Part shown: in pieces, positions 36,331 to 42,789 of the stretch
Layout of the letters: every line of letters starts with the position of its first letter
How positions within the stretch are numbered: the first letter of the stretch is position 1
DNA from: Pirellulales bacterium
GTDB lineage: Bacteria > Planctomycetota > Planctomycetia > Pirellulales > Thermoguttaceae
Reading direction: 5' to 3'
Assembly (NCBI GenBank): GCA_016931995.1
Contig: JAFGDS010000062.1
Span: 1 to 42,789 of the forward strand
DNA length: 42,789 nucleotides
The notes under the pieces: generated by a model
Seen by the model: only the letters and a program-made list of their open reading frames with translations
What the model was told of the DNA's origin: nothing
The model's database searches: none
Made by a program: the position numbers and the translations under genes

Positions 36331-39279
36331 TCATGGCGAGGCGGCCGCGCGGACCTGCGACGCCATCGCAATCAGCGCCGGGACGTCGAGGATCAGCGAG
36401 ACGCGGCCGTCGCCCAGGATGCTTGCCCCGGCGATACCCGGCACGTTGCGGTAGTTTTCGGCCATGGATTTGATGACGACGTCCTGCTCGCCGACCACGC
36501 GGTCGACGGCCAATCCGATTTCCTGCCCGCTCTCGCCCACGATCACCAACGTCAATTCGTCCGACTCGCTCTGGTCTTCTCGCAAGGCGGCGTGGGCCCA
36601 CGTGAAGACGCGGTCGAGCCGGACGACGGAGACGACGCGGCCCCGGACGCGGGCGGTCCACTGCCCGTGGACGGTGGTCGTGTCCGCGCGGCGGATGCCG
36701 ACGATCTCGGCAACCGATTCCAGCGGCATCGCGAAGACGTCGCGGTCGATCTCCACCATGAGGCTGGGCAGGATGGCCAACGTCAAGGGGAGCTTGATGG
36801 AGAGGGTGGTGCCGCGTCCCGGCTCGCTGTCCAACTCGACGGTCCCGTTGAGCCCCTCGATTTTCGACTTGACGATGTCCATGCCCATTCCGCGCCCGGA
36901 CACCTCCGTGACGCGCTGGGCCGTGCTCAAGCCCGGCTCCCATATCAATTGGAAAATCTGGCTTCGCGAAAGCCGCTCGGCGTCGCCATCGGAAACGAGA
37001 CCCTTCTCCAACGCCTTCCGGAGGATGCTCTCGGGATCCAGCCCTCGGCCGTCGTCGTTCACTTGGATCAGGATGCTGTTGCCGCGGTGGAAAGCGTTCA
37101 GCGTGACGGTGCCCTCGGGCGGCTTGCCGGCCGCCTGGCGGTCCTCGGGCGACTCGATGCCGTGGTCGGCCGCGTTGCGGACCATGTGGATCAGCGGATC
37201 GCTAAGCTCGTCGATCATCCGCTTGTCCAGCTCCGTCTTCTCGCCGTGGATTACCAGACGGATCGACTTGCCGTTACCCCGGGTTATGTCGCGGATGACG
37301 CGTTTGAACCGGGCAAAGAGTGGACCGATGGGCACCATGCGGGTGTCCATCACCGTCTGTTGGAAGGCGTCGGTCACGCGGCCGAGCTGATGGATGGCCT
37401 CGCCCAGCTCGTTGACCGCCGCGTGCGCCCGGGCGAGCGACTCCACCTCCCGCCCGATCGGCTCGAGCTCGCGATGCACGCGCCGCGCCTGCGCGCGAAG
37501 CTCCGCCAGTTCCACCTGAAGCCCGTGGACGTCGGACGACCGCCGCTTCGATTCGGCCATCGTCCCCAACGAGGCGAGCACGTTCTTGATCGACTGCGCG
37601 GCTTGTTTGTCGCCAACCAGGGATCGCAAACCCTCGCCGAGCTGCGCGAACCTCGCCTGACTGATGACCAGTTGGCCCGCCAGGTTCATCAACTGGTCGA
37701 GCCGTTCGATCTCGACGCGAAGCGTCTCCGCCGGCTTCGCGGCGTTTTCGGCGGTTCGGCCGGCGTCGCGCGATTCCTCCGCCGCCGCGGGCGGACCGGC
37801 CAAACGACGCGACGAGACCTTGTTCAGGGCGGCCGCCGCGCCTGGCGACGGGACCGGACTTGCCTCGGGCGGCGCCTCCTCGCCCACGAGCGGCTCGACG
37901 AGCACGTCCTGCACCCCGGCCACCCGAAGAATCGGCGCCACCGCCTCGGCCTGTTTGTCGGTCGCCACCGCGAAACGGATTCCCGTCAGGTCGTCGATCG
38001 TATCAAGCGTCTCGGCCGGCGGGTCGAAATGGAAGACGTCGCCGACGCCGCTGAGCTTCTCGAACAGCAGCCGGGCCTTCAACCCAACCAGATCCAGCCG
38101 CGGCCGGAACGTGACCGCGCCGATGAGGGCGTCGCTTCCCAACGGCACGGACGCCGCCAAACGTCGCCTCAACTCGTCCGGCACCGTGGCCTTGCCCGGC
38201 GAACACGACGCCGGCCGGGAGACCGCGGAAGCCGCCGCCGACGGCCCAGCGGCGGGCGGCGCCGTCTGGACCGCGGCGCTCGGCATCGCGGCGAGCAGCG
38301 CCCGGGCGGGTCGGTTGAAGTCGTACTCGGCCGGGTTCCCCTTTTTGAGACCCTCGACGTATTGCCGCAGATGGTCCGTGCATTGCAGCATCGCGTCCGT
38401 CACCCCCGCGGACAGGCCGCATCCGGCGCTGGCGACGTTCTGAATCAAGTCCTCCATCAGGTGCGCCAGCTTGGCGGCCCGGTTTTGGCCGACCGACGCC
38501 GCGGAACCCTTGATCCGGTGCGAGATGATCAACGCCTGCTCGATGTCGTGCCGCGAGCCGCCGCCTTCGACCGACACGAACATGTCGGCCAACTGGTCCA
38601 GCGCCATCTCCGTCTCGTCGATGAAGATCGACAGGTACTTGGACGGCGCCTCGCCCTCGTCGCGGATGCCGGCGAACAAGTCGGGCGCGTCCGGCGCGTC
38701 AACGGGTGGGCCGGCGGCCGGCGGCGGCGAAGCCGGTTCGGACGTTGACGGATGGGGTTCCGCCGCGGCCGATTCGATCTGGATCTCGCGAAGCGCTCGT
38801 TCCGCGTCGGCCTGCGAGCTCTGATGGCGCTCGGCGCCGCTGGCTTGAAGCAGTTGGGCGATCTGCCCGATGATCGACTCGCACTCGACCGGTTCGGCTT
38901 CGGGATCCTTGAGGGCCCCGACGAGGCTCACGAGCCGGTCGACCGCCTGAAACATCAATTCGACGACGCTGCCGGTGATAACGAGTTGGTTCTTGCGCGC
39001 GGCGTCGAAGACGTTTTCGACGCGGTGGGTCAGCGTATTGATGTCGGTCAACCCCAGCATGGCCGACAGCCCCTTGAGGCTATGAGCCGACCGGAACATT
39101 TGGTTGAGCAGATGGTCGTCGCACCGCTCGCGGTGGTCCTCGGCCAGGGAACGAACCCATTCGTCGAGTTGCAGAAGATGGTCGTTGAGCGAGTCAAGAA
39201 GCTGGCCCGACTCGTCGAGGAAATCCCCCAACAAGCTTTCGAAGAACTCGTCTCGGGCGACGGGGGCCGTCTGGCTCAT
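36331..39279 (-). CDS. cheA: CheA, chemotaxis histidine kinase with two HPt domains
   Basis: 982 aa from ATG 39279, with GGAGGGA just upstream; its ATG overlaps the cheR stop (ATGA). Two phosphotransfer domains are visible: FRSAHSLKGLSAMLG with His66, and IISHRIKGSAASVGQ with His254. A proline-rich linker and a ferredoxin-like P2 region (about 385-465, LDLVGLKARLLFEKLSGVGD) follow. The dimerisation segment is near 520-630 (LRVEIERLDQLMNLAGQLVI). The ATPase domain has LSDPLIHMVRNAADHGIE, QVNDDGRGLD, SGRGMGMDIVKSKIEGL and GRGTTLSIKLPLT. The CheW-like regulatory domain ends the protein (AMPLESVAEIVG ... VGEQDVVIKSM). Autophosphorylation and transfer to CheY are expected. Two HPt copies are unusual but known in some bacteria. 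Confidence 0.95.
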   Translation of the reverse strand: MSQTAPVARDEFFESLLGDFLDESGQLLDSLNDHLLQLDEWVRSLAEDHRERCDDHLLNQMFRSAHSLKGLSAMLGLTDINTLTHRVENVFDAARKNQLVITGSVVELMFQAVDRLVSLVGALKDPEAEPVECESIIGQIAQLLQASGAERHQSSQADAERALREIQIESAAAEPHPSTSEPASPPPAAGPPVDAPDAPDLFAGIRDEGEAPSKYLSIFIDETEMALDQLADMFVSVEGGGSRHDIEQALIISHRIKGSAASVGQNRAAKLAHLMEDLIQNVASAGCGLSAGVTDAMLQCTDHLRQYVEGLKKGNPAEYDFNRPARALLAAMPSAAVQTAPPAAGPSAAASAVSRPASCSPGKATVPDELRRRLAASVPLGSDALIGAVTFRPRLDLVGLKARLLFEKLSGVGDVFHFDPPAETLDTIDDLTGIRFAVATDKQAEAVAPILRVAGVQDVLVEPLVGEEAPPEASPVPSPGAAAALNKVSSRRLAGPPAAAEESRDAGRTAENAAKPAETLRVEIERLDQLMNLAGQLVISQARFAQLGEGLRSLVGDKQAAQSIKNVLASLGTMAESKRRSSDVHGLQVELAELRAQARRVHRELEPIGREVESLARAHAAVNELGEAIHQLGRVTDAFQQTVMDTRMVPIGPLFARFKRVIRDITRGNGKSIRLVIHGEKTELDKRMIDELSDPLIHMVRNAADHGIESPEDRQAAGKPPEGTVTLNAFHRGNSILIQVNDDGRGLDPESILRKALEKGLVSDGDAERLSRSQIFQLIWEPGLSTAQRVTEVSGRGMGMDIVKSKIEGLNGTVELDSEPGRGTTLSIKLPLTLAILPSLMVEIDRDVFAMPLESVAEIVGIRRADTTTVHGQWTARVRGRVVSVVRLDRVFTWAHAALREDQSESDELTLVIVGESGQEIGLAVDRVVGEQDVVIKSMAENYRNVPGIAGASILGDGRVSLILDVPALIAMASQVRAAASP

Positions 39280-40178
39280 CGTTCCCTCCGGTCGGAGCGC
39301 GCATTGGGGGCGAGGGGACGTTGGAAGAGCCACGGCTGGATCCGCTGGTAGTCGCGAACCAGGTCGGCGACGCCGTCGGCCGCGCCGGCCATCAGGAGGC
39401 CGCCCGCCCGGATCCTCGACCGGACGTTTTCCAAAACCCGCTTCTTCGACGTTACGTCGAAGTAGATCAACACGTTCTTCAACACCACAAGGTCGAACGG
39501 CCCCTCGGCCAGGGGCTCCATCAAGTTGTGTCGGCGGAACGAGACCATCTTGCGGAGAATCGGCTTGGCCTGCCAGATGTGGGCGTCGCGCGCCTTGGTG
39601 AAAAACCGGTGATGTTCCGGACGAACCAGATGCATCGCTCGCTGGCAGAACACGGCCTCTTCCGCCTTCTCCAGCGCGCCGGCGCCGATATCCGTGCCCA
39701 AAACGCGGATTTCCCACGTCGACAGATCGGGTAACCCCGCCGCGATGCAGCAGGCAATCGTGTACGGTTCGTCGCCGGTGCTGCACGCGGCCGACCAGAT
39801 CCACAGCCGTCGCGGCCGTCCTCCGCTCCGCGCCGACTCGACGAGATCCGGAAGGAACCGCTGCCGAAACCAGTCCCATTGCACCTCGTCGCGAAAAAGG
39901 TACGTCTCGTGCGTCGTGATCTCCTGAAGGAAGGCGTCCCATTCCGGGTCGTTCGGGCGGAGCCGCCGAAGGTGCTCGTAGTACGCGTCGAATCCCGCGA
40001 TGCCGGTCTCCCGCAGCCGGCGCCGAAGCCGATTCGACAACAGCGTCTTCTTGTGCGGCGACACGCGAATTCCCGTCCGATCGTAAATCATCCGCGCGTA
40101 CCGCGCCAATTGTGAATCGGTCACCTGGACCAGATTCGTCTCGAACGAGGCGGGCTTGAGCAATTCGGGTGGCGACAT
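39276..40178 (-). CDS. cheR: CheR, chemoreceptor methyltransferase
   Basis: 300 aa from ATG 40178. CheR uses S-adenosylmethionine to methylate glutamates on chemoreceptors. The N-terminal all-helical domain has LARYARMIYDRTGIRVSPHK and LLSNRLRRRLRETGIAGFDA. The catalytic domain shows EITTHETYLFRDEVQWDWFR, the SAM-binding WIWSAACSTGDEPYTIACCI, VLGTDIGAGALEKAEEA and FDLVVLKNVLIYFD. Its stop overlaps the cheA start by four bases, indicating translational coupling. A cheB methylesterase, the usual partner, is not in the window. Confidence 0.95.
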   Translation of the reverse strand: MSPPELLKPASFETNLVQVTDSQLARYARMIYDRTGIRVSPHKKTLLSNRLRRRLRETGIAGFDAYYEHLRRLRPNDPEWDAFLQEITTHETYLFRDEVQWDWFRQRFLPDLVESARSGGRPRRLWIWSAACSTGDEPYTIACCIAAGLPDLSTWEIRVLGTDIGAGALEKAEEAVFCQRAMHLVRPEHHRFFTKARDAHIWQAKPILRKMVSFRRHNLMEPLAEGPFDLVVLKNVLIYFDVTSKKRVLENVRSRIRAGGLLMAGAADGVADLVRDYQRIQPWLFQRPLAPNARSDRRER

Positions 40179-40295
40179 GGCGTTGGGGCTTGGATGGAAG
40201 AGATCGCGTGAGGACGAATTCGGTTCTTCGCATAGGCGATGGGTCTCGTCGTCGCGCCAAGGGCGCCGTCGCTCTTGGCGATCCCTCGGGCCGCG

Positions 40296-40817
40296 TCACA
40301 CGGCAGCCGCGGCGGCCGCTTCCGCCTGGGCGGTTTCCTCCTGGCTCATAATTCGGTCGATGTCCAAGAGGATAAGGAGCCGGTTCTCCAGCTTCACCAG
40401 ACCCGTCAGGTACTCGTGGCCCAGGCCGGCCACCGTCGGCGGCGGCGGGGCAATCTGGTCCTGGGCGATCCGAAGCACCTCGCTCACCGCGTCCACGATG
40501 ATCCCGATCGTCTTGCCGCACACGTTGACCACCATGATCCGCGTTTCGTCGGTCGTCTCTTCCCGAGCCAGCCCAAACCGCAATCGCAGATCGACGATCG
40601 GAATCACCGTGCTGCGCAGGTTGATGAGCCCCTTGATATACGCCGGCGTCTGAGGCACCCTCGTGATCTCGCCCATCAGGATGATTTCCTGAACCTTGGT
40701 GATCTCGATCCCGTATTCCTCCTGCGCCAGGCGAAAGCTGACCAGTTGCATCGTCTCCATGGCTTCGGTTCGGCGATTCTCCTGCGTCGCCGTTTCGGCA
40801 TGCGTCACGGTGGACAT
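40296..40817 (-). CDS. cheW: CheW, chemotaxis scaffold
   Basis: 173 aa from ATG 40817, with GAGGAG eight bases upstream. CheW couples chemoreceptors to CheA. The SH3-like domain begins MQLVSFRLAQEEYGIEITK and has VQEIILMGEITRVPQTPAYI, KGLINLRSTVIPIVDLRLRF and GIIVDAVSEVLRIAQDQIAP, all family standard. An acidic and alanine-rich tail follows the domain. It is first in the minus-strand chemotaxis run, 117 bp before cheR. Its promoter was not clearly identified; TATAGT on the minus strand near 40912 is a possible -10 without a good -35. Confidence 0.95.
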   Translation of the reverse strand: MSTVTHAETATQENRRTEAMETMQLVSFRLAQEEYGIEITKVQEIILMGEITRVPQTPAYIKGLINLRSTVIPIVDLRLRFGLAREETTDETRIMVVNVCGKTIGIIVDAVSEVLRIAQDQIAPPPPTVAGLGHEYLTGLVKLENRLLILLDIDRIMSQEETAQAEAAAAAAV

Positions 40818-40876
40818 GGAACGCTCCTCTTATCCAGTTGGATTGGAGTGGGTCGCCTCAACTCGTGCCGGGTGAC

Positions 40877-40998
40877 GACGCCACCCGACGGCGTCTCCCC
40901 ACGCGGTGGAACTATAGGTTATGCCACCCCTGGCTGATCCTCGCCGCACAATGATCCTGTCAGACTTACAGGCGTGCCGGTTGGTGGGATCCAACCGG
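40877..40998. repeat. Hairpin-rich stretch between cheW and divergent cheY
   Basis: Three perfect short hairpins: GACGCC/GGCGTC (40877-40895), CCTGT/ACAGG (40956-40972) and CCGGTTGG/CCAACCGG (40977-40998, 6-nt loop). They lie in the 420-bp gap 40818-41237, which has no gene I can support. Which strand is transcribed here is unknown. Confidence 0.6.
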
Positions 40999-41080
40999 TT
41001 GTACCGCGACGGGAGAGCCCAGGACCCAAGGGGCTTCGGTTCCATCCGGCGGCGGATCGACGCGGCCCGCGACGCCACAC

Positions 41081-41109
41081 GGCGCGTCCGCGCGTGTCGC
41101 GGACGCGCC
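41081..41109. repeat. Perfect 12-bp hairpin upstream of cheY
   Basis: GGCGCGTCCGCG (41081-41092) pairs with CGCGGACGCGCC (41098-41109) around CGTGT. Very stable, but neither side has a T-tract, so it is not a standard intrinsic terminator. Confidence 0.75.
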
Positions 41110-41142
41110 GCCGCGCTCCCTCCCGGACGCGCCAACCGCCAT

Positions 41143-41170
41143 TTGACAAACCCGTCGCGTGACCTAGGAT
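41143..41170 (+). promoter_or_regulatory. Sigma70-like promoter of the divergent cheY
   Basis: TTGACA (41143-41148, perfect), a 16-nt spacer and TAGGAT (41165-41170). The transcript would start near 41177, just before the hairpin at 41182. Confidence 0.6.
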
Positions 41171-41181
41171 TTCACGAAAAC

Positions 41182-41205
41182 GGAACCAAGCGACGGCTTG
41201 GTTCC
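41182..41205 (+). promoter_or_regulatory. Perfect 10-bp hairpin at the predicted 5' end of cheY mRNA
   Basis: GGAACCAAGC (41182-41191) pairs with GCTTGGTTCC (41196-41205) around GACG. It begins about five bases after the predicted start of transcription, where such stems can protect an mRNA from 5'-end decay. Confidence 0.6.
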
Positions 41206-41237
41206 CTAAATGAGAGAGCAGACAACGGGGATGAACC

Positions 41238-41606
41238 ATGTCCAGCCGAGTTCTCGTCGCTGACGATTCCAGCACGATGCGCAAGATCATTCTGCGATCG
41301 CTCCAGGCGGTCGGCGTACCCGACGCCACCGAGGCCGCCGACGGCGCCGAGGCCGTGGCCCTGTTCAAGCCGGGCGAGTTCGACCTGGTGTTGACCGACT
41401 GGAATATGCCGGGCAAGACCGGCCTCGAGGTTGTCCAAGAGATCCGCGCGATGGACAAAAACGTCCCGATCATCATGATTACGACCGAGGCCGAGAAGGG
41501 CCGCGTCATGCAGGCCATCCAGGCCGGCGTTTCCGACTATCTCGTCAAGCCCTTCACCGCCGACACCCTCCGCGAAAAGCTCGATAAGCACGGCTGCGGA
41601 GCGTAA
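41238..41606 (+). CDS. cheY: CheY, chemotaxis response regulator
   Basis: 122 aa from ATG 41238 (GGGGA seven bases upstream), a stand-alone receiver of standard CheY size. VLVADDSSTMRKIILRSLQ has the metal-binding acidic pair; LVLTDWNMPGKTGLEVVQEI has the phospho-acceptor Asp; IIMITTEAEKGRVMQAIQAG has the switch Thr; and YLVKPFTADTLREKL has the conserved Lys. WNMPGKTG is the form typical of true CheY rather than generic receivers. It should receive phosphate from CheA and act on a flagellar switch or pilus motor, none of which is encoded here. Transcribed away from the cheW cluster from its own predicted promoter. Confidence 0.95.
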   Translation: MSSRVLVADDSSTMRKIILRSLQAVGVPDATEAADGAEAVALFKPGEFDLVLTDWNMPGKTGLEVVQEIRAMDKNVPIIMITTEAEKGRVMQAIQAGVSDYLVKPFTADTLREKLDKHGCGA

Positions 41607-41705: not shown

Positions 41706-42455
41706 TCAGTCGCCGACTCGCCACTGTTTGATTTCGCCGTCGCCGTTGGCGGCCACCAGCCGCTTCCCGTCGGGAGAAAACGCGGCGGCCGTGATGGGGT
41801 GATGCTCGTTCTTCTCGAAGGCCCAGGGGATCTCCGGCTCGATGGCATGCTCCCGGACGTTCCAAAAGCACAATTCCGCCCACTTCCCACCGCGGTTCCA
41901 GCTTCCCAACGGAACGACCAGCATCCCGCCGTCCGGCGAAAAGCTCACGCAACCGAAATGGACCTGGTCGTCCTGCCATAACAACTCCCCAGTTCGCTCG
42001 GCCACGTTCCAGCGGCGGATCTCTCCGCCGACGACCTCGCCGTCCGGTGACCGGGAGCCGCAACTGATTAGGGTCTTCCCATCGGGCGAGAAGACGACCT
42101 GCCTGACCGTTCGTTGCAGCCCCAAGACAGCAAAGCGCGGCTTCCGTTTGGCCAGATCCCAGAGTTGGACGCCGCCCGTGGGATTCCGGCCCGTGACAGC
42201 TTTGACCACGCGGTCGCCGATCGAAGCCGCCTTCGCGCCCGGCAGCGTGCCGGCCGTGGCCAGGGTCTTTCCATCGGGCGAGATCGCCAGCGAGAGTATG
42301 CCGCCAGGGGCTGTGGCGCCCGTCATGTCGGGCGGAAGCTCCTGGAGCGGTTTTCGCTCCTTGAGTTCCACCGTGGCGGCATTCCGCGGATTCCCCAGAG
42401 CCGCCCAAGCAACCAATACGGCCAGCATGACGGAGAAAAACGGCCGAGCGCACAT
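41706..42455 (-). CDS. Exported WD40-repeat protein
   Basis: 249 aa from ATG 42455, with a perfect AAGGAGGT six bases upstream; the frame extends further 5' but without a comparable site. MCARPFFSVMLAVLVAWAAL is a signal peptide or single membrane anchor. Four WD40-type blades can be recognised by SPDGKTLATAG, FSPDGKTLISCG, FSPDGGMLVVPLG and FSPDGKRLVAANG, with QLWDLA, RRWNVA and KQWRVGD closing strands. A full propeller needs about seven blades, so the protein is short, and could dimerise or be partly degraded. No partner domain is present. Planctomycetes carry many such proteins of unknown function. It lies next to an IS110 element. Confidence 0.8.
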   Translation of the reverse strand: MCARPFFSVMLAVLVAWAALGNPRNAATVELKERKPLQELPPDMTGATAPGGILSLAISPDGKTLATAGTLPGAKAASIGDRVVKAVTGRNPTGGVQLWDLAKRKPRFAVLGLQRTVRQVVFSPDGKTLISCGSRSPDGEVVGGEIRRWNVAERTGELLWQDDQVHFGCVSFSPDGGMLVVPLGSWNRGGKWAELCFWNVREHAIEPEIPWAFEKNEHHPITAAAFSPDGKRLVAANGDGEIKQWRVGD

Positions 42456-42582
42456 GCCGCACCTCCTTCCGGAAGGGGGATATGCCCACGGCTCCGCACG
42501 CGCGGACTTCAACAATGCGTTATTCATCTTGGTCCCGGGAATCTTCGCGGCCGGGCAAAGTCAGCGGTAGATGGTGATGAAA

Positions 42583-42650
42583 GCCTATTGCTCCAAGTGG
42601 TAAAACGGATTCGCGGCAAACCGATTCGTTTTCCTCAAGGAGCAATAGGC
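42583..42650 (+). ncRNA. Candidate IS110 leader RNA with two stacked stems
   Basis: GCCTATTGCTCC (42583-42594) pairs perfectly with GGAGCAATAGGC (42639-42650). Inside, AAAACGGATT (42602-42611) pairs with GATTCGTTTT (42623-42632) using two G-U pairs. The stems are separated by a 7/6-nt internal loop and capped by an 11-nt loop. The structure ends at the transposase ATG and includes its ribosome binding site. IS110 elements are known to encode a bridge RNA in this non-coding end, so this is a candidate part of one. Confidence 0.4.
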
Positions 42651-42789
42651 ATGGCCATTGTAAAGGTTTTTGTGGGTTTGGACTACCACGACGAGGCGGT
42701 CCAGGTGTGTGTGATGACGCTCAAGGGGAGGATCCTGGTGAACCGGAAGACGCCCAACGACGGGAGGGCGATCCGGGAATCGGTCGGCG
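42651..42789 (+). CDS. IS110-family transposase, N-terminal 46 residues
   Basis: Partial gene running off the window. ATG 42651 follows AGGAG (42638-42642) with eight bases between. The reading MAIVKVFVGLDYHDEAVQV ... VNRKTPND is the start of the RuvC-like DEDD domain of IS110 recombinases, with the first catalytic Asp in GLDYH. The C-terminal serine-containing domain lies outside. These enzymes use a bridge RNA to select target and donor, so the leader upstream matters. Whether this copy is intact cannot be judged here. Confidence 0.85.
   Translation, partial: MAIVKVFVGLDYHDEAVQVCVMTLKGRILVNRKTPNDGRAIRESVG

What the first reader, a model, noticed from the sequence alone, without database searches (positions are those of the whole stretch)
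42583..42650. Compact two-stem RNA leader abutting the IS110 transposase start and masking its RBS
A perfect 12-bp outer stem, an asymmetric internal loop (7 and 6 nt), a 10-bp inner stem with two G-U pairs and an 11-nt loop occupy exactly 42583-42650, and the ATG is the next base. The ribosome binding site AGGAG lies in the outer stem's 3' arm, so folding would block translation. Bridge RNAs are known in the non-coding end of IS110 elements; stem plus internal loop is the expected layout, but at 68 nt this is shorter than the characterised example. It may be both guide and translational switch.
Basis: partly seen in the sequence, partly recalled or inferred. Interest (0 to 1): 0.65.

Follow-up and report, generated by a model that had tools for sequence, protein, structure and literature searches.

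The report
Hairpin hiding transposase ribosome-binding site
A small RNA hairpin at the start of a jumping gene in a planctomycete bacterium probably keeps its transposase from being made too often; it is probably not the guide RNA that picks the landing site, which in related elements lies at the other end.

Summary
The hairpin is as described (68 nt, -34.9 kcal/mol, z -7.55) and abuts the ATG of a transposase cut off by the contig end. Sibling elements carry the same layout before their transposase. The outer stem shows compensatory changes (20 leaders: 89.2% of cells paired, 6 of 12 pairs changed on both sides); the inner hairpin is kept with little shared sequence. A leader model finds further transposase starts in 4 of 14 genomes not used to build it.

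The bridge-RNA reading is not supported. Siblings have subterminal inverted repeats and 218-305 nt after the stop, the IS1111 layout. That 3' region, not the leader, matches the insertion-site flank (anchored test: 9 of 10 families, Fisher p 6e-9; leader p 0.94). The window's own 3' region was not found in the assembly, so this is inferred from siblings.

The 5' arm overlaps the left subterminal repeat; the 3' arm holds the ribosome-binding site. Best reading: a translation lock like the one shown for ISPpu9, in a compact form built on the element's own end. What opens it is unknown.

The parts
42553..42567 (+). left flank: remnant of a host palindromic repeat (GGGCAAAGTCAGCGG, cf. TGGCAAAGCCAGTGG), the apparent insertion target
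   Evidence: the same repeat flanks the C22 copy; 201 exact copies of TGGCAAAGCCAGTGG in the genome
42568..42585 (+). left end of the element: terminal extension and subterminal inverted repeat ATGAAAGCC (42577-42585); the exact outer boundary is inferred
   Evidence: partner GGCTTTCAT seen in the internally deleted copy C22; motif (T)AGATGGGGATGAA or a variant in siblings
42583..42594 (+). outer stem, 5' arm (overlaps the subterminal repeat)
   Evidence: covariation
42602..42611 (+). inner stem, 5' arm
   Evidence: an inner hairpin is kept in siblings
42612..42622 (+). apical loop, 11 nt
42623..42632 (+). inner stem, 3' arm
42638..42642 (+). ribosome-binding site AGGAG
   Evidence: predicted unpaired probability 0.00
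42639..42650 (+). outer stem, 3' arm (contains most of the RBS)
   Evidence: covariation
42651..42788 (+). start of an IS110/IS1111-type transposase gene, cut off by the contig end
   Evidence: Pfam PF01548 E 8e-5; matches in siblings 36-59% identical

Best explanation
The 68 nt are the 5' untranslated leader of an IS1111-type (IS110 family) transposase gene. Shown by sequence: the transcript can fold into a two-stem hairpin, the 5' arm of the outer stem overlaps the element's left subterminal inverted repeat, the 3' arm holds the ribosome-binding site, and the layout is kept by compensatory changes in siblings. Inferred: the fold blocks ribosome entry and keeps transposase synthesis low, both for transcripts reading in from host DNA and for those from the promoter expected at the right end/left end junction of the circular form (a TTGACA-like box sits in the right end). 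Not known: what opens it (chance opening, an antisense RNA as in ISPpu9, or a protein). The guide RNA of these elements is, from the siblings, in the 3' non-coding region.
For: z -7.55. 23 leaders (window included) have median z -4.07, against -0.40 for 12 other IS110/IS1111 leaders from plasmids. Outer stem: 89.2% of cells paired against 83.8% in shuffles (0 of 500), 6 of 12 pairs changed on both sides (1 of 500 shuffles reach this), slid controls 28-46%. Inner region: z below -1 in 20 of 20, below -2 in 17. 17 of 23 leaders have an exact stem of 8 bp or more between the last 20 nt before the start and the upstream leader, 0 of 23 for a control stretch inside the gene. Model hits in genomes not used to build it run into a transposase start in G223, G092, G216 and G118. 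ISPpu9: point mutations weakening its RBS-burying 5'-UTR raised a translational fusion 26-fold (PMC8450116, passage).
Against: No experiment on this element. Six of 23 leaders have an exact outer stem under 8 bp. Limnoglobus roseus departs: RBS region 0.45 unpaired, z -1.54; RYN428 0.71 unpaired with the start I used. Predicted RBS accessibility alone does not separate the groups well: median 0.10 here, 0.20 in the 12 others; and among those 12, Mesorhizobium, S. fredii and Cupriavidus leaders have z of -2.9 to -4.4. In one search one measure, further pair types, is lower than or equal to all 500 shuffles (8 against a mean of 10.8). Of 23 broken cells in pairs 1-12 of 19 distinct arms, 20 are C-A or A-C, which would be G-U on the other strand, and the antisense strand has the lower z in 15 of 23 (Wilcoxon p 0.011; energy difference p 0.12; rows are related), so an antisense RNA may be what is structured. 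No sigma-70-like promoter found at 42400-42789.
Confidence: 0.72

Rival explanations
1. The leader is a compact bridge RNA/seekRNA: its internal loops guide the recombinase to target and donor.
For: IS110-group elements mostly carry the bridge RNA upstream of the transposase (PMC11208160, passages); seekRNAs can be 70-100 nt (PMC11187229). The latter paper also reports exceptions in which the non-coding region lies at the other end than usual.
Against: No flank match in the leader in 10 families (Fisher p 0.94) while the 3' region matches in 9 of 10 (Fisher p 6e-9); donor-end match not above chance overall; the window and C22 flanks do not match the window leader (best 6 nt, p 0.14).
Confidence: 0.04
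2. The conserved structure belongs to an antisense RNA made from the opposite strand over the leader, as Asr9 is in ISPpu9; it would pair with the leader and open or close it.
For: 20 of 23 broken cells in pairs 1-12 are C-A or A-C, i.e. G-U on the antisense strand; antisense z lower in 15 of 23, p 0.011; Asr9 precedent (PMC8450116).
Against: Energy difference not significant (p 0.12); 15 leaders of other groups lean the other way (sense more stable in 12); no promoter seen on either strand of 42400-42789.
Confidence: 0.15
3. The inverted copy of the end repeat works as DNA: a transposase-binding operator beside the gene start, giving autorepression.
For: The 5' arm overlaps the subterminal repeat, so the 3' arm is an inverted copy of part of it.
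Against: In G664 and OFTM243, where both ends are known, the 3' arm follows the left end where the right end does not (CTCC/GGAG) and departs by one base where the two ends agree; the outer half of the repeat (TTCAT) does not follow the 3' arm; the inner hairpin is kept as structure with little shared sequence.
Confidence: 0.08
4. Transcription terminator that stops read-through into the element.
For: Strong hairpin at the element's edge.
Against: 0 terminator-like sites at 42400-42789 on either strand.
Confidence: 0.02

Closest known systems
ISPpu9 tnp 5'-UTR (Pseudomonas putida, IS110 family; PMC8450116, abstract and passages)
   Same: Transposase of the IS110 family, inserted in REP palindromes, leader folds and buries the RBS.
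   Different: ISPpu9's leader is long (translation start at +245) and its element has an antisense RNA (Asr9) and a downstream RNA (Ssr9); here the left end is about 83 nt, its stem overlaps the subterminal repeat and ends at the ATG; an antisense RNA is not shown.
IS200 RBS-occluding stem-loop (as recounted in PMC3196728, passage)
   Same: Hairpin over the transposase RBS limits translation.
   Different: Different IS family (unrelated transposase; recalled).
IS1111-group elements with seekRNA / bridge RNA in the right end (ISEc11, ISPa11, ISKpn4; PMC11187229, PMC11208160)
   Same: DEDD transposase, subterminal inverted repeats, short left end, long 3' non-coding region with a target complement, REP-like target (ISPa11).
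   Different: The parts I read (passages of both; sections 7-9 of PMC11187229) do not describe an RBS-masking left-end hairpin.
ISEc45 and relatives (L088, L087, L133, L136, L137)
   Same: Exact stem of 7-10 bp between the left end and the RBS next to the start codon.
   Different: Not found by the leader model; but that model also misses the siblings L054 and L071, so homology is neither shown nor excluded.

Membership tests
IS1111 group of the IS110 family | DEDD transposase with PF01548 and PF02371 | tested here: met
   both domains in full-length siblings L032 and L028; the window holds only the start of PF01548
IS1111 group of the IS110 family | subterminal inverted repeats (7-17 bp per PMC11208160; usually 11-13 per PMC11187229) | tested here: met
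   read by eye: 9 bp in the C22 copy of this element; about 8-15 bp in siblings
IS1111 group of the IS110 family | short left end, long right end | tested here: met
   left end 75-87 nt, 218-305 nt after the stop in 34 sibling copies of 10 families; not measurable in the window itself
IS1111 group of the IS110 family | guide RNA in the right end, top-strand complement before bottom-strand match | tested here: inconclusive
   top-strand complement present; the best bottom-strand match follows it in Lroseus, G742 and Bin61 (p 0.25, 0.04, 0.15) but precedes it in G684 and G664 (p 0.08, 0.38)
IS1111 group of the IS110 family | circular intermediate with junction promoter | not testable with these tools
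   TTGAC(A/T/G) near the right end in C22 and in 9 of 10 sibling families by eye; Bin61 lacks it; no clear -10
bridge RNA / seekRNA (the leader itself) | segments complementary to the insertion-site flanks | tested here: not met
bridge RNA / seekRNA (the leader itself) | segments matching the donor ends | tested here: not met
   left end only: Fisher p 0.16; 3 of 21 leaders individually below 0.05
bridge RNA / seekRNA (the leader itself) | co-purifies with the transposase | not testable with these tools
   needs wet work
RBS-masking transposase 5'-UTR (ISPpu9-like) | RBS inside a conserved stem of the leader | tested here: met
RBS-masking transposase 5'-UTR (ISPpu9-like) | weakening the structure raises translation | not testable with these tools
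   shown for ISPpu9 only
Rfam families | match to a curated family at its gathering score | tested here: not met
   0 matches in the window and in four sibling loci

The most novel reading that the evidence does not exclude
The left subterminal repeat of these elements has two jobs: as DNA it is the end that the recombinase recognises, and as RNA it is the arm that locks the transposase's ribosome-binding site, so that end recognition and transposase dosage evolve together. The same plan may recur in distant IS110/IS1111 relatives: 6 of 13 ISEc45-type leaders have an exact stem of 8 bp or more once the Marinobacter start is corrected, 5 if Pseudosulfitobacter, whose leader as a whole is not better folded than shuffles, is left out. 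That would make it a general, so far undescribed control of RNA-guided transposition.
Probability: 0.3. Interest if true: 0.55.

Novelty: new variant of a known kind. Interest (0 to 1): 0.4.

Why it matters
IS110/IS1111 recombinases are RNA-guided and of interest as tools. How such elements hold their own transposase in check has been studied in at least one case, ISPpu9. A compact, covarying leader shared by planctomycete elements gives a simpler model to test, and it warns that a structured RNA next to an IS110 transposase is not necessarily the guide.

Tried and rejected
Leader as guide: flank complementarity and left-end complementarity not above chance. One D1 flank matches the leader by 8 nt (p 0.001); that flank happens to contain GAAGACTC, part of the repeat. 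In the test of the 3' region the flanks of other families gave 2-8 nt: 6-8 where families have near-identical flanks (G684, D1, G154), but also 7 for the unrelated G684/D1 flank in the Limnoglobus region. Families with like flanks are not independent, so the Fisher p is too small.

Leader pairing with the 3' guide region: 12 families tested; only G742 (11 nt, 0 of 500 shuffles) stands out, OFTM243 p 0.11, the other 10 at chance. Rejected as a general feature.

Terminator or local promoter: none found. Own 3' region: motif GCTCGGATAGANGANTGG not found in the genome with up to 1 mismatch. Relatives in viral contigs: the planctomycete query found none; three other transposase queries gave 0, 2 and 1 loci, not used further.

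Rows left out. The genome scan gave 31 loci: 10 Limnoglobus copies and 3 ACE_PLA8 copies were each used as one in the leader counts; L077 and L079 were not used in counts because their start or left end is unclear (L077 shows a long stem). Alignment A3 had 24 leaders with G664 cut wrongly; A4 has 20, leaving out Limnoglobus, co150, RYN428 and PLA19, of which the first three are poor fits. In one search (22 rows, 19 distinct arms) Limnoglobus and co150 are absent and three rows were adjusted by hand (KLAP214 and D1 gapped, G742 shifted by one); one search is the cleaner count. In one search the Marinobacter start was set wrongly (601 instead of the annotated 532); corrected (9 bp, p 0.002). Of 25 other planctomycete IS110 leaders 2 had a stem of 8 bp or more (5 with p < 0.05), and 0 of 9 other plasmid elements (1 with p < 0.05). 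Model hits came from 14 genomes not used to build the model; from these I looked at one to three loci each: 4 with a transposase start (G223, G092, G216, G118), G209 where the three contigs looked at end within three codons, 4 that look like remnants (G090, G132, G226, G148), 5 without a recognisable transposase start (G220, G179, G336, G246, G027).

Full report
What is there. It folds at -34.9 kcal/mol, z -7.55, 0 of 200 shuffles as good. The gene after it is the first 46 codons of an IS110-family transposase (Pfam DEDD_Tnp_IS110, E 8e-5, below the curated cut-off; it is cut short); the contig ends there.

Other copies in the same genome. A search with the region finds two partial copies. C116 begins inside the transposase gene, at about codon 18. 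C22 (10070-10162, minus strand, read) carries the left end and the 5' half of the hairpin, then switches directly to ACGGCATCACCACTTGACAAAGTGACCGGCTTTCATGGA. I read this as the right end: it holds GGCTTTCAT, the inverted partner of ATGAAAGCC in the left end, and it looks like the right ends of sibling elements (TTGACA...TTCATAGA). C22 is thus, by this reading, a 93-nt internally deleted copy, and it supplies the element's subterminal inverted repeat. Both insertions lie next to GGCAAAGYCAG; TGGCAAAGCCAGTGG occurs 201 times in the genome (102 forward, 99 reverse, reversed-pattern control 0), a REP-like repeat.

Siblings. The 46-residue start matched 6 of 396 genomes of the same order, own genome included. 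A full-length sibling found 3 of 392 genomes of the phylum at E 1e-50 or better, and 31 loci in the species-genome collection, whose titles are planctomycete. Where the left end is intact the leader has the same plan: (T)AGATGGGGATGAA or a variant, a 5' arm such as GCCCGTTGCTCC, a variable middle, GGAGCAACGGGC or a variant, and the start codon.

Conservation of the fold. Alignment A4 holds 20 distinct leaders. For the outer stem, 89.2% of cells form standard pairs (shuffled mean 83.8, 0 of 500 reach it), 6 of 12 pairs have a change on both sides (1 of 500), the covariation score is 0.249 against 0.155 (0 of 500), further pair types are not more than in any shuffle (8 against a mean of 10.8), and sliding the partner by 1-3 columns drops pairing to 28-46%. 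RNAalifold predicts 9 of these pairs from the same alignment. The region between the arms shares little sequence but has z below -1 in 20 of 20 leaders (median -2.57). Whole-leader z has median -4.07 in 23 leaders, window included, and -0.40 in 12 other IS110/IS1111 leaders from plasmids, three of which (Mesorhizobium, S. fredii, Cupriavidus) also fold well. A covariance model of the leader hits 19 of 396 genomes of the order. Of the 14 not used to build it, four (G223, G092, G216, G118) run straight into a transposase start; the rest are contig ends, remnants or unrelated. The model misses two true siblings, Limnoglobus L054 and L071. Related rows inflate such counts, and I did not correct for phylogeny.

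Is it the guide RNA? In 34 sibling copies of 10 element families, the left end is 75-87 nt and 218-305 nt of sequence follow the stop up to the right end. This and the subterminal repeats are the IS1111 layout, in which the guide RNA is reported in the right end, with exceptions (PMC11208160, passages; PMC11187229, abstract, passages and sections 7-9). I tested it. The complement of the right flank occurs in the 3' region as 7-9 exact nt, 67-106 nt after the stop, in all 10 families (individually p < 0.05 in 7). Anchored at the junction it holds in 9 of 10 (p < 0.05 in 8; Bin61 fails by an offset of two bases), Fisher p 6e-9; the same test on the leader gives p 0.94. Some families share like flanks, so the p-value is too small. 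The left-flank match is weak and its order is mixed. So the guide is very probably in the 3' region and the leader is not it. The 3' region of the window's own element was not found in the assembly, so this rests on siblings.

How it probably works. The 3' arm contains most of the ribosome-binding site, whose predicted unpaired probability is 0.00 in the window and 0.10 at the median of 23 leaders; the 12 comparison leaders have 0.20, so this number alone says little. The closest precedent for masking is ISPpu9: its tnp 5'-UTR is thought to bury the RBS, and weakening the structure raised a fusion 26-fold (PMC8450116, abstract and passages). I infer the same role here. By analogy with ISEc11, whose joined ends form a promoter (PMC11187229, section 7), the TTGACA-like box in the right end could drive transcription from near the left edge of the hairpin in the circular form; but I see no convincing -10, so the start is a guess. 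In the window the nearest long upstream ORF runs the other way (41706-42527, minus strand), so host read-through is not an obvious source of transcript at this site.

Loose ends. Of 23 broken cells in pairs 1-12 of 19 distinct arms, 20 are C-A or A-C, which the opposite strand would read as G-U, and the antisense strand has the lower z in 15 of 23 (p 0.011; energies p 0.12). ISPpu9 has an antisense RNA over its leader, so this deserves an experiment. Stems of the same plan exist in some ISEc45-type relatives. In several leaders the inner GGGTTAG could pair with either of two downstream segments, and the apical loop often reads CGAG(C/T)(A/G)T (seen by eye).

Novelty. I found no paper describing an RBS-masking left-end hairpin for IS1111-type elements. 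My searches were IS110 with bridge RNA, seekRNA with IS1111 (26), IS1111 with transposase, hairpin and ribosome binding site (35, 0 papers), ISPpu9 (71), IS110 family with stem-loop and ribosome binding site (102, 1 paper), IS110 with translational, inverted repeat and mRNA (103, 6 papers) and RBS sequestration in insertion sequences (104, 4 papers), in an open-access library only; of the papers listed I opened four. IS200's RBS-occluding stem is mentioned in PMC3196728 (passages). I class it as a new variant of a known kind.

Noticed in passing
G000:C22 10070-10162 (L005 3071-3163, minus): 93-nt copy of the same element that seems internally deleted with both ends kept; could perhaps be moved in trans by a full copy.
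   Followed up: partly
G000:C116 1-87 (L004): Second, 5'-truncated transposase copy at a contig end, joined to other sequence at about codon 18.
   Followed up: no
whole genome G000; window 42553-42567: 201 exact copies of a REP-like palindrome TGGCAAAGCCAGTGG, some in close pairs, which seems to be the element's target.
   Followed up: partly
L127, L128, L133, L134, L136, L137, L087, L088, L090, L086: Proteobacterial and actinobacterial IS110-type elements with an exact stem of 7-10 bp joining the leader to the RBS beside the transposase start; three of them (L127, L128, L086) not above chance.
   Followed up: partly
outer stem of siblings; window 42583-42650: Mismatches are mostly C-A, i.e. 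G-U on the antisense strand; the antisense leader has the lower z in 15 of 23.
   Followed up: partly
L042 (G742): Leader apical part is complementary over 11 nt to the 3' guide region (CGATGCTCGAA); not general in the other 11 families tested.
   Followed up: yes
L064, L068, L073, L080, L081 leaders: GGGTTAG or GGTTAG can pair with CTAGCCC or with a following CTAAC: two exclusive inner folds, perhaps a switch.
   Followed up: no
window 36331-41606: ORFs that look like a chemotaxis cluster (CheA-, CheR-, CheW- and CheY-like); names recalled from the translations, not searched.
   Followed up: no
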